A stretch of 64,000 nucleotides of DNA from Tsuneonella aeria. Its GTDB lineage: Bacteria; Pseudomonadota; Alphaproteobacteria; Sphingomonadales; Sphingomonadaceae. Below the pieces are notes generated by a model that saw only the letters and a list, made by a program, of their open reading frames with translations, did not search any database and was not told the origin of the DNA. Positions 46,840-51,163 of the stretch are shown here, one piece after another (the first letter of the stretch is position 1; every line of letters begins with the position of its first letter). The translations under genes were made by a program, and so were the position numbers. The DNA is taken from the NCBI RefSeq assembly GCF_009827495.1, contig NZ_WTZA01000001.1:186001-250000 (forward strand), in the 5' to 3' direction.

Positions 46840-47354
46840 TGACCTCACGGTTCCACGCCGCCGCGCTGTCGGTCACGCTGCTGATGCTGTCCGCCTGCGC
46901 CGAGGAAGAGGGCCCTAGCCCTGCCGAGAAAGCCCGCATGAACGAGGCCGCCGTGGCCGAGGTCAAGGCCGCGCAAGTCCCACCGCCGACGCCGGTGACG
47001 CCCGACACGATCGGCTTTGCCGACGTCGAACAGTACGATCTTTTCGGCGCGGGCTGCAACTTTGCGCTCGCCGACAGCGGAACGCCCGTCGCGCTGCTTC
47101 AGCCGGAACGGGGCTACATGAAGATCGACGGGAAGCTGGTGCCTTTCGCCCCCGACGCGGGAAGCGACGTGCTGCCGCTGGGCACCCGATCGCGCTACAC
47201 CGGCGCGGCGTGGTCGCTCATCCTCGATCTGTCATCCGCAGAAGGCAAACAATCGGGGATGGAGACGGTCGATTATCCCGCGCGTTTCGTGCTGCGTAAC
47301 GATCGGGACCAGATCGTCTATCAGGCCAGCGGGATCGCGCAGTGCGGTAGTTAG
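46839..47354 (+). CDS. Putative lipoprotein of unknown function
   Basis: Protein of 171 residues with a lipoprotein signal peptide ending in MLSAC, so Cys about 20 would be lipidated. A charged, Ala/Glu-rich stretch and a short Pro run (PPPTPVTPDT) precede a compact domain with YDLFGAGCNFALAD and SGIAQCGS, whose two Cys may pair. I do not recognise the domain. ATG 46839 overlaps the mutL stop by one base, so the gene is translated with mutL. Its end overlaps the convergent maoC-like gene by four bases. Confidence 0.7.
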   Translation: MTSRFHAAALSVTLLMLSACAEEEGPSPAEKARMNEAAVAEVKAAQVPPPTPVTPDTIGFADVEQYDLFGAGCNFALADSGTPVALLQPERGYMKIDGKLVPFAPDAGSDVLPLGTRSRYTGAAWSLILDLSSAEGKQSGMETVDYPARFVLRNDRDQIVYQASGIAQCGS

Positions 47355-47815
47355 GTTTCGATCGCCGCATCCGGGTCACGAACCTGGATCAGGCCGTTCG
47401 AAACCATGGACATGACCGGTTCGTCGTTCTGGTTGAAGACGGTGAGCCGGGACTTGAAAATGCCCATCTCGGGCCGCGACTCGCTGCGCCGCTTCTCGAG
47501 GACAGTTGATTCCACCCGCAGCGTGTCGCCAGGGTACACGGGCTTGATCCACCGCAACTCGTCGATCCCGGGCGAACCGAGGCCGGCCTGGCGGTTTTCT
47601 TCCATGTTGCGGACCAGCATCGACATCGTCATCGCGCAAGTGTGCCAGCCGCTTGCGGAGAGCCGGCCGAAATGCGTCTTCGCGGCTGCATCGTCGTTGA
47701 GGTGGAAGGCTTGCGGATCGTATTTTTTCGCGAACTCGACCACTTCCTCTCGCGTGACCTCGTACCGGCCAAACCGCGCCTTGCGGCCGACTTCGATGTC
47801 TTCAAAATAATCCAT
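47351..47815 (-). CDS. MaoC-like dehydratase
   Basis: Hotdog-fold protein of 154 residues of the MaoC/(R)-specific enoyl-CoA hydratase group. FEDIEVGRKARFGRYEVTREEVVEFAKKYDPQAFHLND at the N-terminus carries the catalytic Asp/His pair (DPQAFHLND), and SASGWHTCAM follows. The family hydrates enoyl-CoA in fatty-acid or PHA metabolism; the exact substrate is unknown. It starts only five bases after the His-rich outer-envelope gene and so may lie in the MerR-controlled operon, although its function fits that context poorly. Confidence 0.85.
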   Translation of the reverse strand: MDYFEDIEVGRKARFGRYEVTREEVVEFAKKYDPQAFHLNDDAAAKTHFGRLSASGWHTCAMTMSMLVRNMEENRQAGLGSPGIDELRWIKPVYPGDTLRVESTVLEKRRSESRPEMGIFKSRLTVFNQNDEPVMSMVSNGLIQVRDPDAAIET

Positions 47816-47820
47816 GCGCC

Positions 47821-49185
47821 TTAGTCCCCCAGGCTGAATCGTGCGAACACAGTGTAGCTGAAAGGACTGCGCCCATAATAGGGGTCGAGCGCCGCGGGCT
47901 TGGCATACGTTGCCGCCGATCCGCCAAGTGCGAGGTTCAATGGACCGAGAGGGACGCGATAGGCGTAGCCGGCCTGGAACTTCGTCACGCGAAACGGTTG
48001 ATCGTGGAGCGGGTCGTGGTGATCGGGAAAAAGTTCGTCGTTCTTCACGTTCTCGATCCTGCCGAACACCGTATGCCTGTCCGTCAGGTCGTAGTTCACT
48101 TCACCAAGCCACGCCGTCAGCGTTTTGCCGGGTTCGCGATCCTTGGCGCTGAATGCCGCCATCGCCGACAGCCCGCGAGCGTTGTTGTACTGGGCGGACA
48201 GGGTCGTCCGATGTTCGTCCTCCCCCGGATGCAGTTCTTCCGGCTGCTCGATTCGGCCGTGGCTTGCCTGCAGCAACCAGGCTGGCGAGGGCGCATAGCT
48301 CGCGCGCACGCTCCACGAATCCAGCCGGGGCTTTTCGATGTTCCAGCGATATTCGTCCGGCTCGCGCCCACGGAAGGTGCTGGCCTCAAGCTGCCAGCGC
48401 GGCGCCGCGACCCCGGCAGAGATCACGCCATAGGTGATGTGGGTGGAGTCGAACCAGTGGTGGGTGATGGGGGCTTCCGGATTATAGCGCGCGCTGGCCC
48501 GATGCATGAACGTGCTCGGCCCCAATGCCGGTTCCCCGACCGGCCCGCCGTAGATGAACGCGGTCGTCCCGTCCGCGATGTCGATATCGAGCCGGCCGAC
48601 CAACTCCATGAACAGGTCGTGGGGATGCTGCCGATCGACGAGCGCTTCGCCATACGCGACCTCACCCGTAGCAAAGAGGTTGGGATAGCCATCATGGCGC
48701 ATCAGCGGCTCCAGGCTCAACATCGTCCGGGCGGTGAACTTCCCGCCCTCGAACGGCGCCGAGATCGTCGCCATCGCCATGGACTGGACGTAGAACTTGT
48801 CGTCGCCGCGAACCCCGCCCTGGTCGGTGTAGACCGGCCAGAGGAAACCGTGTAGCATCAGGCTGGCATCGCCTCCCAATCCAACCATGGCGCCATGGCT
48901 CATCGTCTCGTTGGCGGGCACGCGCGCGGTGCCCGAACCCTCTCCGGAATGCGTGATACCGCCGTGTCCCGCACCGCGGTGAGACATCGCTGAATGGTCC
49001 ATCCCCGAATGGTCCATCCCCGCATGACCTTTCCCGGAATGGTCCATGTGGACGTGATCCGTCGGGGAGGCGGTCGGTGCGGCCGGTTCCGTCGCGGGCG
49101 TGTCATGGCCCGCGTGGCGGTCCTGGGCGAAAAGTGGGACGGGCTGGGCCAGGACGGCCGCGCCGAGAATCCATCGCGTTATCAT
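47821..49185 (-). CDS. His-rich envelope protein, probable metal-related porin
   Basis: Protein of 454 residues with a signal peptide (about 1-21, ILGAAVLAQPVPLFAQ). The next 70 residues are packed with His, Met and Asp in MDHSG-type repeats, a likely metal-binding region. The rest is rich in alternating strands with many Trp and Tyr, consistent with an outer-membrane beta-barrel, although the last residue is Asp rather than the usual aromatic. It is 21 bases downstream of the broken glutaredoxin-MauE gene and five bases upstream of maoC. Position behind the mer-like promoter suggests metal-induced expression. Confidence 0.7.
   Translation of the reverse strand: MITRWILGAAVLAQPVPLFAQDRHAGHDTPATEPAAPTASPTDHVHMDHSGKGHAGMDHSGMDHSAMSHRGAGHGGITHSGEGSGTARVPANETMSHGAMVGLGGDASLMLHGFLWPVYTDQGGVRGDDKFYVQSMAMATISAPFEGGKFTARTMLSLEPLMRHDGYPNLFATGEVAYGEALVDRQHPHDLFMELVGRLDIDIADGTTAFIYGGPVGEPALGPSTFMHRASARYNPEAPITHHWFDSTHITYGVISAGVAAPRWQLEASTFRGREPDEYRWNIEKPRLDSWSVRASYAPSPAWLLQASHGRIEQPEELHPGEDEHRTTLSAQYNNARGLSAMAAFSAKDREPGKTLTAWLGEVNYDLTDRHTVFGRIENVKNDELFPDHHDPLHDQPFRVTKFQAGYAYRVPLGPLNLALGGSAATYAKPAALDPYYGRSPFSYTVFARFSLGD
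48992..49051 (-). repeat. Tandem 15-base repeats encoding MDHSG-like units
   Basis: Four consecutive 15-base units, 48992-49006, 49007-49021, 49022-49036 and 49037-49051, with the first two nearly identical (GAATGGTCCATCCC). On the coding strand they encode pentapeptides such as MDHSG and HAGMD in the metal-binding part of the His-rich protein. Copy number may vary by slippage. Confidence 0.8.
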
Positions 49186-49206
49186 CGGTCGAAATTTCCA
49201 CGAATA

Positions 49207-49880
49207 TCAATGGTAGAAGATCATCCAGACCGCCATCGCGATCATGGCAAGGTTCTCGCTCAGTGACACGAACCCCAGGGGCACGTTGCTCGATCCGCCC
49301 ACACAGGCGCACTTGATCGAGCGCTTTTGCACGTAGACGGCGTAGAAGACGCTCACGGCCCCGATCGTGCCGATTACGAGCGCAACCGGAATCGACACCC
49401 AGTCGAGCGCCTGCGCGGCCATCAGCGTGCCGGCCAGGAACTCGAGGTACGGGTACGCATAGCTGTAAGGCACCCATCGTCTGGCGAGCAGGTCGTAGCC
49501 CAGGAACATGCTCGAGAACTTCTCGACATCCTGCAGCTTGAGCATGGCGAGAATGACCATCGCGAAGCTGACAAACCATTCGCCGGCGCGCACGGTGAAC
49601 GGGTTGCCGAACACCGCGTAGCTTACGGCGAGCGCCAGCGCCCCGGCCGCCGCGAAAACCGCCAGTACCGGGACGTAGCGTGTCGATCCGTCAGCCGGAA
49701 GCGGCTTGCCGAAGAACGCGCGAAGGTCGGTGTAGCCGCCGATTCGCCGCCCATCGATCGATCGTCCACCGTGTAGCCATGACGTTCGAGCAGCCATTTG
49801 GCCTTGATGCCATACGGACATGTATGGTCCGGCAGCGCCATGCGGGTGAGGCTTGCGGTCTTGGAACCTGTCATGCGCAT
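49207..49880 (-). pseudogene. Glutaredoxin-MauE fusion broken by internal deletion
   Basis: The N-terminal part, from ATG 49880 (or 49874), encodes a glutaredoxin-like start with LPDHTCPYGIKAKWLLERHGYTVDD. The C-terminal part, in another frame, encodes IDGRRIGGYTDLRAFFGKPL and a MauE/DoxX-type membrane region with about four helices and KCACVGGSSNVPLGF. The frame changes at 49754-49763, at a run of overlapping GATC repeats. About 25-30 residues normally found between the two glutaredoxin halves are absent. The deletion therefore removes part of the thioredoxin fold and shifts frame. The membrane half could still be made if re-initiated. Confidence 0.7.
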
Positions 49881-49881
49881 G

Positions 49882-49913
49882 CTTATAACCTCCGTACCAA
49901 GGTACGGAGTCAA
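49882..49913 (-). promoter_or_regulatory. mer-type operator/promoter
   Basis: Minus-strand -35 TTGACT (49908-49913) and -10 TATAAG (49882-49887) are separated by 20 bases, the long spacing used by MerR-family activators. The spacer holds a perfect dyad, CTCCGTACC-AA-GGTACGGAG, at 49890-49909. Its core, TCCGTAC-N4-GTACGGA, is the half-site pair of the classic mercury mer operator as I recall it. Transcription would begin about at the first ATG of the gene, so the message is leaderless or starts at ATG 49874. Confidence 0.8.
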
Positions 49914-49915
49914 GC

Positions 49916-50302
49916 GTGAAAGCGATGCGCATATCCGATCTGGCCGCTTCGGCCGGCGTCGGCGTGGAAACGGTGCGATTCTACCAGCGGAAAGGTCTGA
50001 TGCCGGCGCCGCGGGGCGAAGCCCGGGGCGGCCGTCGTTATGGCGCGGAGGACGCGCGGCGGCTGCGCTTCGTGCGGCGGGCGCAGGCGGCGGGATTTAC
50101 CCTTTCCCAGATCGCGGAACTCATAAACCTGGACCGCAGTGACGATCGCACGCGCGCGCGTACGATGGCGCAGGATAGAATCGCCGCGCTCGAGGCGGAA
50201 ATCGCGCGGCTCGAGGATGCACGCCGCGCGTTGGGCAAGCTGGCCCACGACTGCGCCCGCGGCGGGGCGGGACCATGTCCCATCCTCGCCGCCTTCGATT
50301 GA
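49916..50302 (+). CDS. MerR-family metal-type regulator lacking the first sensor Cys
   Basis: Activator/repressor of 128 residues. The winged-helix DNA-binding domain (about 5-75) shows MRISDLAASAGVGVETVRFYQRKGLM. A dimerisation helix follows, then a C-terminal CARGGAGPCPIL loop. This resembles the metal-binding end of mercury MerR (Cys 117 and 126 there), but no Cys occupies the position of MerR Cys 82: the segment reads LDRSDDRTRAR. Mercury binding in the usual three-Cys way is therefore not possible. GTG 49916 has GGAG six bases upstream, inside the operator, so it should repress itself. Confidence 0.85.
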   Translation: MKAMRISDLAASAGVGVETVRFYQRKGLMPAPRGEARGGRRYGAEDARRLRFVRRAQAAGFTLSQIAELINLDRSDDRTRARTMAQDRIAALEAEIARLEDARRALGKLAHDCARGGAGPCPILAAFD

Positions 50303-50304
50303 CG

Positions 50305-51105
50305 TTACAGCCGAGGCTTCAGGTTGTCTTTGCGGATGTCAGGTATGATCCGGTACCGCGCGATGATCAGGCTGAACACGCCGAACAGGATCAGGCCGAG
50401 AGCGACCAGAGGATAAATCACTCCATTATCGCTCAAGGCGACCAGCGCTTCGCCGAGGCCCTTTATCTCGCCTGACCGGGAGAACCATGCGCCCTTGATC
50501 AGCGACCACCCGATGAGCGCGAAGACGACCGCCCGCGAGGCATGGCCGGCGCGCCCGATCGGTTCGACATAGCGCGGCGCGCTGCCGCTGACGTGCTTCA
50601 TGAAATTGCCTGTGTAGGCGTTCTTGGCCTGCACCGCCGCGGCAACGAGGAAACCAAGGCCAACGAGTCCCAGCAGCACCGGTCCCATATCCCAGGTAAG
50701 CAGGCTGCCGGCCACCTCCTGACCGCTGCCGCCTTCGCCCGCGGACTGCTGCTTTTCTCCGGCGGCGAATTGGTAGGCGGTATAGGCGAGGACGAGGTGC
50801 GCGATCGCGCTTGCCGCTGCGCCCACGCGCTTTCCCTTGCCCGAGGCGTCGTCGCTATGACTCTCGATATTGGATGCCGCGTCGATTGCCTTGAATACCG
50901 CGTATGCGAGCAGGCCCAGGGCGACGAGGTAAAGAATAACCTCGCCCATCGGCGCATCCTGGATCATGTCGAACACGGCGGCCTGACCGTCGCCCGCCTT
51001 GCCGGCCGTCGACAGGGCCAGGTATCCCAGCAAAATATAAACCACCCCGCGCGCGGCGTAGCCTATGCGCACGAGCCAGCTGAACTTCTCGGACTTGTCG
51101 ACCAT
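50305..51105 (-). CDS. DUF1206 membrane protein
   Basis: Integral membrane protein of 266 residues with six hydrophobic segments arranged as three repeated pairs, each starting with an RxGYAARGVVYxLLG-like helix (residues about 12-32, again near 95-115 and 190-210). This three-fold repeat is the DUF1206 pattern. Function is unknown. ATG 51105 has AGGGGA upstream and fits better than the in-frame start at 51132. It is convergent with merR, two bases apart, and is not part of the metal cassette. Confidence 0.85.
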   Translation of the reverse strand: MVDKSEKFSWLVRIGYAARGVVYILLGYLALSTAGKAGDGQAAVFDMIQDAPMGEVILYLVALGLLAYAVFKAIDAASNIESHSDDASGKGKRVGAAASAIAHLVLAYTAYQFAAGEKQQSAGEGGSGQEVAGSLLTWDMGPVLLGLVGLGFLVAAAVQAKNAYTGNFMKHVSGSAPRYVEPIGRAGHASRAVVFALIGWSLIKGAWFSRSGEIKGLGEALVALSDNGVIYPLVALGLILFGVFSLIIARYRIIPDIRKDNLKPRL

Positions 51106-51163
51106 CGCGGCTATTCCCCTTTTCGCGCCCAACGTGCGAGTGCGTGGAAGGTGCCCAGCGCGA

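What the first reader, a model, noticed from the sequence alone, without database searches (positions are those of the whole stretch)
47351..50302. MerR cassette with a mer-identical operator driving a broken glutaredoxin-MauE fusion, a His-rich barrel and a MaoC gene
A MerR-type regulator is divergent from a leftward set of genes behind a promoter with 20-base spacing and the dyad TCCGTAC-N4-GTACGGA, the half-site pair of the mercury operator as I recall it. No merT, merP or merA is present. The first gene was a glutaredoxin fused to a MauE-like membrane domain, and the next encodes an MDHSG-rich, probably outer-membrane protein. This looks like a metal or thiol-stress cassette built differently from known mer, cue or czc systems. 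The link of maoC rests only on a five-base gap.
Basis: partly seen in the sequence, partly recalled or inferred. Interest (0 to 1): 0.7.

Follow-up and report, generated by a model that had tools for sequence, protein, structure and literature searches.

The report
MerR copper cassette with broken glutaredoxin
A bacterial metal switch, most likely for copper, controls a membrane glutaredoxin gene (damaged here but intact in relatives) and an outer-membrane pore gene, and it offers a testable role for a widespread glutaredoxin whose function is unknown.

Summary
A MerR-type gene (49916-50302) faces a leftward promoter (TTGACT, 20 bases, TATAAG) with the dyad TCCGTAC-N4-GTACGGA. The first gene, a glutaredoxin-MauE fusion, is broken by a 73-base deletion; next is a Met/His-rich predicted 16-strand barrel. 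maoC lies near ychF in genomes without the cassette (15 of 30 maoC loci), so I exclude it.

The MerR/Grx-MauE pair is widespread: 71 of 80 Grx-MauE loci in named genomes have a divergent MerR-type gene within 3 kb. Of 90 such pairs (19 found from the barrel), 87 carry the half-sites with at most one mismatch. The operator resembles mer, but the sensor does not: two loop cysteines spaced as in CueR, third mercury cysteine missing.

The context is copper: copper genes beside the genome's second, intact copy; CueR in place of this MerR in Methylobacterium; barrels beside CsoR-type, CueR-like and copper-ATPase genes; no MerA over cut-off. I read it as a copper-type MerR module, a new variant of a known kind, partly inactivated here. 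The family includes S. meliloti SmGrx3, of unknown function. Metal specificity is inferred, not measured.

The parts
49916..50302 (+). merR-type regulator, 128 aa (GTG at 49916, or ATG at 49925)
   Evidence: Pfam MerR_1 and MerR-DNA-bind; below every NCBIfam cut-off, best TIGR02051 MerR 100.6 of 150.85; C113 and C121 kept in 91 of 92 aligned rows
49882..49913 (-). promoter of the leftward genes: TTGACT, 20-base spacer, TATAAG
   Evidence: sequence; of 87 related promoters a 20-base spacing fits best alone in 53, tied in 23, another spacing in 11
49891..49908 (-). operator dyad TCCGTAC-CTTG-GTACGGA inside the spacer
   Evidence: sequence; half-sites GTAC-N4-GTAC exact in 79, one mismatch in 8, absent in 3 of 90
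49623..49874 (-). glutaredoxin fragment (frame A): ATG at 49874, 7 bases after the -10 box; CPYG motif kept; runs out of frame after the deletion and stops inside the mauE stretch
49752..49764 (-). deletion junction (73 bases absent relative to relatives), within a cgatcgatcg repeat
49207..49762 (-). mauE fragment (frame B), open to the natural stop, including the CAC loop
   Evidence: Pfam MauE 1.6e-12; 88% identical to the intact G008 copy over residues 59-241
47821..49185 (-). outer-membrane barrel gene, 454 aa, Met/His-rich N-terminal part modelled at low confidence
   Evidence: AlphaFold2 model with 16 long strands, mean pLDDT 64.3; best Foldseek hits are porins, best E 6.5e-10; at least 7941 related proteins
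47351..47815 (-). maoC-type dehydratase: neighbour only, not counted as part
   Evidence: Pfam MaoC 5.6e-16; near ychF without any cassette gene in 15 of 30 loci

Best explanation
A MerR-family activator with a CueR-like two-cysteine site binds Cu(I) (or another coinage metal), twists the overlong 20-base promoter and switches on a short operon. In relatives the operon gives (1) a membrane glutaredoxin-MauE protein, a thiol unit with one Grx cysteine and a CAC loop that I place on the same, cytosolic, side, acting on glutathione-bound or protein-bound copper or on copper-damaged thiols, and (2) a porin-like outer-membrane barrel with a Met/His-rich periplasmic tail that binds copper or lets it out, working like CopB/PcoB without belonging to that family. 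In this genome the Grx-MauE gene is a fresh pseudogene, so the switch now serves mainly the barrel, while the intact second copy on the 626 kb contig, beside copper genes, can supply Grx-MauE. Shown: anatomy, deletion, conservation of gene pair and promoter, copper neighbourhood. Inferred: inducer, direction of copper movement, redox chemistry, co-transcription, freshness of the break.
For: Divergent MerR-type gene within 3 kb in 71 of 80 Grx-MauE loci of named genomes; shared promoter half-sites in 87 of 90 pairs. Sensor: C113 and C121 in 91 of 92 rows, seven residues between them in 89, no Cys at positions 77-78; the CueR-classified L134 protein also has seven and lacks that Cys, the MerR of the mer-like operon has eight and a Cys. 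27 sampled regulators form one group (100/98) split from CueR-type and mer-like ones. The own second copy lies between a copper-type P-ATPase (TIGR01511 610.3, cut-off 397), a DUF326 four-helix protein and a CopA oxidase (795.4, cut-off 478.95). Regulator exchange: Grx-MauE behind CueR (159.8, cut-off 147.4) with a CCTTCC/GGAAGG operator in Methylobacterium; barrel behind a CueR-like regulator (145.3, just under cut-off) and behind CsoR-family genes in two loci (one by Pfam, one by motif). Copper genes near Grx-MauE in 30 of 80, near barrels in 2 of 44. Annotated plasmids: Sphingobium baderi MerR, glutaredoxin, barrel, heavy-metal ATPase, TolC; Pontibacter copper ATPase, barrel, four-helix copper protein. 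In G009 the same operator also precedes a copA-type oxidase.
Against: 50 of 80 Grx-MauE loci have no tested copper gene within about 9 kb, and several reference genes were picked from that same set, which favours it; the 2-of-44 control uses shorter stretches. The MerR scores nearer to NCBIfam MerR (100.6) than CueR (77.1). The strict operator occurs in only 8 of 289 class genomes, and of its 10 places only 3 adjoin Grx-MauE and 1 MerR-barrel; 2 lie by the mer-like operon and 4 by other MerR relatives or other genes. Grx-MauE also occurs without MerR or operator at the maoC site in 5 of 30 loci; second copies in G001 and G005 show neither MerR nor operator, and the one in G008 has MerR but no operator by my pattern. 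A 20-base spacing is not the best fit in 11 of 87 promoters. 24 of 44 barrel loci have neither MerR nor Grx-MauE. An Smgrx3 mutant showed no defect in the tests reported (PMC6315971, passages).
Confidence: 0.65

Rival explanations
1. A mercury-responsive offshoot of mer that lost transport and reductase genes.
For: Operator half-sites equal those of a mer-like operon with MerA found here; best NCBIfam score is MerR.
Against: The mercury cysteine is absent in all 91 filled rows and the loop spacing is that of CueR; no MerA over cut-off in the genome; no MerA active-site motif (recalled) in 80 Grx-MauE loci; neighbours are copper genes.
Confidence: 0.12
2. A thiol-stress switch: the regulator senses oxidised or electrophile-modified thiols, and Grx-MauE repairs them.
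For: Glutaredoxin as first gene; SmGrx3 has low deglutathionylation activity and is listed with heat shock as inducing condition (PMC6315971, passages); MerR relatives include SoxR and NmlR.
Against: The conserved two-cysteine loop matches metal sensors; copper neighbourhood; exchange with CueR.
Confidence: 0.15
3. The 73-base deletion is an assembly error and the operon is intact.
For: One assembly only; the junction lies in a short cgat repeat; the mauE frame is otherwise open.
Against: 73 bases is not a usual base-calling error; the contig is 2.1 Mb in a genome rated 99.99% complete.
Confidence: 0.08
4. Grx-MauE and barrel are general envelope genes placed beside copper genes by chance, with no shared function.
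For: Barrel and Grx-MauE each occur alone in many loci.
Against: Joined behind the same promoter at the ychF site and at other sites (5 of 15 triples elsewhere by YchF match, though L177 and perhaps L181 keep neighbours of that site), and on a plasmid.
Confidence: 0.1

Closest known systems
SmGrx3 (SMa0280) of Sinorhizobium meliloti 1021
   Same: Grx (CPYG) fused to MauE; the pSymA locus is 76% identical to the intact copy of this genome; divergent MerR with a C-x7-C loop and the same promoter with one half-site mismatch. I take the pSymA locus to be SMa0280; the record held here carries no annotation of it.
   Different: The window gene is broken; no barrel match in the 12.7 kb S. meliloti stretch. 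A review calls SmGrx3's function not yet elucidated (PMC6315971, passages).
CueR copper regulators
   Same: C-x7-C loop without the third cysteine; CueR stands in place of this MerR beside Grx-MauE in Methylobacterium
   Different: 77.1 bits against a cut-off of 147.4; separate group in the tree; GTAC-N4-GTAC operator instead of CCTTCC/GGAAGG; 20-base spacing
mer operon regulator and operator (Tn501/Tn21, recalled; G457 here)
   Same: operator half-sites; best NCBIfam model
   Different: no third cysteine, loop of seven, no mer genes beside it; one base more spacing than the recalled 19
CopB/PcoB outer-membrane copper proteins
   Same: Met/His-rich N-terminal repeats (recalled for CopB) and a barrel
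   Different: no Pfam CopB hit among 10 members at E up to 10; best structural matches are porins
Gig system of Cupriavidus metallidurans
   Same: GigT, a membrane protein loosely related to DoxX, is proposed to act with glutathione in copper resistance (PMC10304878, passages)
   Different: no glutaredoxin fusion or MerR/GTAC promoter described in the passages seen; homology not tested

Membership tests
mercury MerR regulon | three metal cysteines including the one at the start of the dimer helix | tested here: not met
   two cysteines in the window protein; D77-R78 in place of the third (position by recalled Tn501 alignment), no Cys there in 91 filled rows
mercury MerR regulon | mer-type operator half-sites | tested here: met
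   TCCGTAC-N4-GTACGGA; same in the mer-like operon of G457
mercury MerR regulon | merA controlled | tested here: not met
   no MerA over cut-off in the genome
CueR | NCBIfam TIGR02044 cut-off | tested here: not met
   77.1 of 147.4
CueR | C-x7-C loop without the third cysteine | tested here: met
CueR | Cu(I) response | not testable with these tools
   needs reporter or binding assay
Grx-MauE (SmGrx3) family | Grx domain with CPYG joined in frame to MauE | tested here: not met
   both parts present in the window but frame broken by 73 bases; intact in 5 syntenic relatives and in the own second copy
Grx-MauE (SmGrx3) family | three conserved cysteines (Grx C26, C220, C222) | tested here: met
   98 of 98 aligned rows, which include the second copy of this genome but not the broken window gene; C26 and CAC are still present in the window's two fragments
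CopB (PF05275, accession recalled) | Pfam CopB match | tested here: not met
   absent for 10 members at E up to 10
operon with maoC | maoC linked to the cassette independently of the ychF site | tested here: not met
   maoC near ychF without cassette genes in 15 of 30 loci

The most novel reading that the evidence does not exclude
A widespread, undescribed class of copper-sensing MerR regulators (mer-type operator, CueR-type sensor) governs a membrane-bound glutaredoxin and, in sphingomonads, a Met/His-tailed porin: a glutathione-linked copper defence that would explain SmGrx3.
Probability: 0.5. Interest if true: 0.65.

Novelty: new variant of a known kind. Interest (0 to 1): 0.5.

Why it matters
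Grx-MauE proteins are common (7999 scored matches, a capped number), yet a review states that the role of the one studied, SmGrx3, remains to be elucidated (PMC6315971). A strongly conserved metal-type promoter and a copper neighbourhood give a direct test. The same promoter shows that mer-like operators need not mean mercury, which matters for annotating metal-resistance genes. The barrel family (7941 scored matches, capped; among the 120 listed the named ones are mostly 'hypothetical protein') gains a likely role. The window itself is a degraded copy, so the interest lies in the family.

Tried and rejected
maoC as a member: rejected. Mercury reading: weakened. CopB membership of the barrel: rejected; no solved relative by sequence at E up to 10. 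The operator as a specific marker of this family: rejected, since other MerR relatives and a mer-like operon carry it. The best Foldseek matches of the Grx-MauE model are glutaredoxins over about 80 columns, E 1.2e-3, so they say nothing on MauE; the CAC loop is modelled at low confidence. A first spacing count (88 of 90) broke ties in favour of 20 and included three promoters without the half-sites; I replaced it. Paper searches for a published link of MauE or DoxX, glutaredoxin, MerR and copper listed no title or abstract that describes this module; apart from the passages cited, I saw listings only, and the library lacks most subscription papers. Not followed: of three plasmid records with the barrel, Sphingobium sp. 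YBL2 was not opened; (PMC8226930, passages) did not mention SmGrx3. Rows dropped: of 19 match rows, ten were not studied further (G000 itself, eight weak partial hits, and the second piece of the G035 gene); set B is 9 loci plus 35 of 41 (the other six were the window or already held). Of 44 maoC matches only the 30 fetched were examined. L102 was left out of alignment A6 because its stretch runs past the stop; one search shows that the stops of L102 and L178 lie at the natural end. In the tree three of four further MerR genes of this genome (L004-L006) and L121 were not picked up by the script.
Full report
Place. The window lies in a 2.75 Mb, two-contig genome (G000).

Anatomy. The regulator (49916-50302 +) and the leftward genes share one short divergent region. 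On the minus strand it reads TTGACT, then 20 bases holding TCCGTAC-CTTG-GTACGGA, then TATAAG. The glutaredoxin start that aligns with relatives is the ATG at 49874, 7 bases after the -10 box, so the message may be leaderless; among the 19 promoters found from the barrel, 12 have their first ATG 6 to 10 bases after the -10 box. The MauE frame opens upstream of the promoter, so its own first ATG is not usable from this promoter.

The break. Against four relatives (G008, G009, G010, G014) the window lacks 73 bases in the middle of the Grx domain. The lost stretch covers the T66-P67-Q68 positions that are at least 97% conserved in 98 aligned relatives, and the frame shifts. The mauE part stays open and 88% identical to G008, which suggests a recent event. 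Intact copies exist in five syntenic relatives and on the second contig of the same genome.

What belongs together. In 44 barrel loci of the order (9, 35), 15 have divergent MerR plus Grx-MauE plus barrel, 4 have MerR plus barrel, 1 has Grx-MauE plus barrel, 24 have neither. One of the four MerR-barrel loci (L204) has a CueR-like regulator and operator. In several loci a small secreted protein with a C-x-G-C motif precedes the barrel. maoC is different: of 30 maoC loci examined, 15 show ychF nearby and no cassette gene, 6 have the cassette, 5 have Grx-MauE only, 4 show neither ychF nor cassette in the stretch. Within the 11 genus genomes, 5 have the full set at this site (the window's with the broken gene), 2 have Grx-MauE only, 4 have none apart from two weak partial barrel matches elsewhere.

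The pair is wide. Of the 80 best Grx-MauE loci in named genomes, 71 have a MerR-type gene within 3 kb in divergent orientation; most are Alphaproteobacteria, some Gammaproteobacteria. The 80 are the best of 582 confirmed matches (a capped list), so they are near relatives of the query. With 19 pairs from the barrel set this makes 90 promoters: GTAC-N4-GTAC exact in 79, one mismatch in 8, absent in 3. In the 87, a spacing of 20 between the hexamers fits best alone in 53, tied in 23, another spacing in 11. Two of the three exceptions are Methylobacterium loci with a CCTTCC/GGAAGG-like operator; the regulator of one (L134) passes the NCBIfam CueR cut-off (159.8 of 147.4), the other (L129) was not scored but sits beside it in the tree. 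The 27 sampled Grx-MauE or barrel regulators are split with 100/98 support from these and from the mer-like relatives (midpoint root, drawing only).

The sensor. C113 and C121 are kept in 91 of 92 rows, which include the three CueR-type ones. The script finds seven residues between them in 89; L135 has eight, L178 has seven with an extra cysteine inside, and L209 is cut short. Positions 77-78, where mercury MerR has its third cysteine (alignment with Tn501 MerR recalled), hold no cysteine in any filled row. This favours a monovalent coinage metal; it is inference.

Copper context. The second copy in this genome lies between a copper-translocating P-ATPase (610.3 bits, cut-off 397), a DUF326 protein and a CopA oxidase (795.4 bits, cut-off 478.95). 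In G008 and G009 the second copy also lies by such an oxidase, and in G009 the operator recurs in front of it; the G008 copy has MerR but no operator by my pattern, and the second copies of G001 and G005 have neither in the stretch seen. Tested copper genes occur within about 9 kb in 30 of 80 Grx-MauE loci and in 2 of 44 barrel loci (Fisher p 2.8e-5). This test leans towards my reading, because several reference genes were taken from the first set, the second set has shorter stretches, and loci of related organisms are not independent. Two barrel loci have a CsoR-family gene directly upstream, L037 by Pfam and L202 by motif. Plasmid records agree: Sphingobium baderi has MerR, glutaredoxin, barrel, DUF305, heavy-metal ATPase and TolC; Pontibacter akesuensis has copper ATPase, barrel and a four-helix copper-binding protein. 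Sphingobium carries the exact operator.

Limits of the operator. The strict form was found in 8 of 289 genomes of the class, at 10 places: 3 by Grx-MauE, 1 by MerR-barrel, 2 by the mer-like operon of G457, 4 by other MerR relatives or other genes. It marks a branch of the MerR family, not this cassette alone.

Structures. The barrel model (10 sequences, pLDDT 64.3) has 16 long strands; its first 84 residues, Met/His-rich, are modelled below pLDDT 50; the best of 944 Foldseek hits are porins. The Grx-MauE model (31 sequences, pLDDT 78.3) has a Grx fold and five long helices in the MauE part besides a shorter one, with the CAC loop between the last two. If the Grx domain is cytosolic and the five helices span the membrane, the CAC loop faces the same side; this is inference.

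Known member. The Sinorhizobium meliloti 1021 pSymA locus has the family's gene, a divergent MerR and the promoter with one mismatch in a half-site. A review (passages read) reports low deglutathionylation activity of SmGrx3, no mutant defect and unknown function. I propose copper as the missing condition.

Verdict. The finding is real and the module is widespread; the copper role is likely but unmeasured; the window copy is partly inactivated; maoC is not part.

Noticed in passing
window 50305-51132: A DUF1206 membrane gene lies between ychF and the cassette; it is present in some relatives and absent in others, so this site may take up genes repeatedly.
   Followed up: partly
L039, L040, L050, L052, L053: Grx-MauE sits directly before maoC with neither MerR nor operator (5 of 30 maoC loci), so it can be held without this switch.
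   Followed up: partly
L179, L180, L181, L182, L183, L184, L186, L190, L199: Small secreted proteins with a C-x-G-C motif and a Pro-rich end precede the barrel; they resemble DUF2946-type proteins (name recalled, not scanned).
   Followed up: partly
L228 (G009), 1312 minus: A second copy of the operator precedes a copA-type multicopper oxidase, a possible further target of the regulator.
   Followed up: partly
L239 and L243 (G330): The strict operator occurs twice near an MFS-like gene and a MerR relative without the third cysteine: other regulons of this operator type remain to be described.
   Followed up: no
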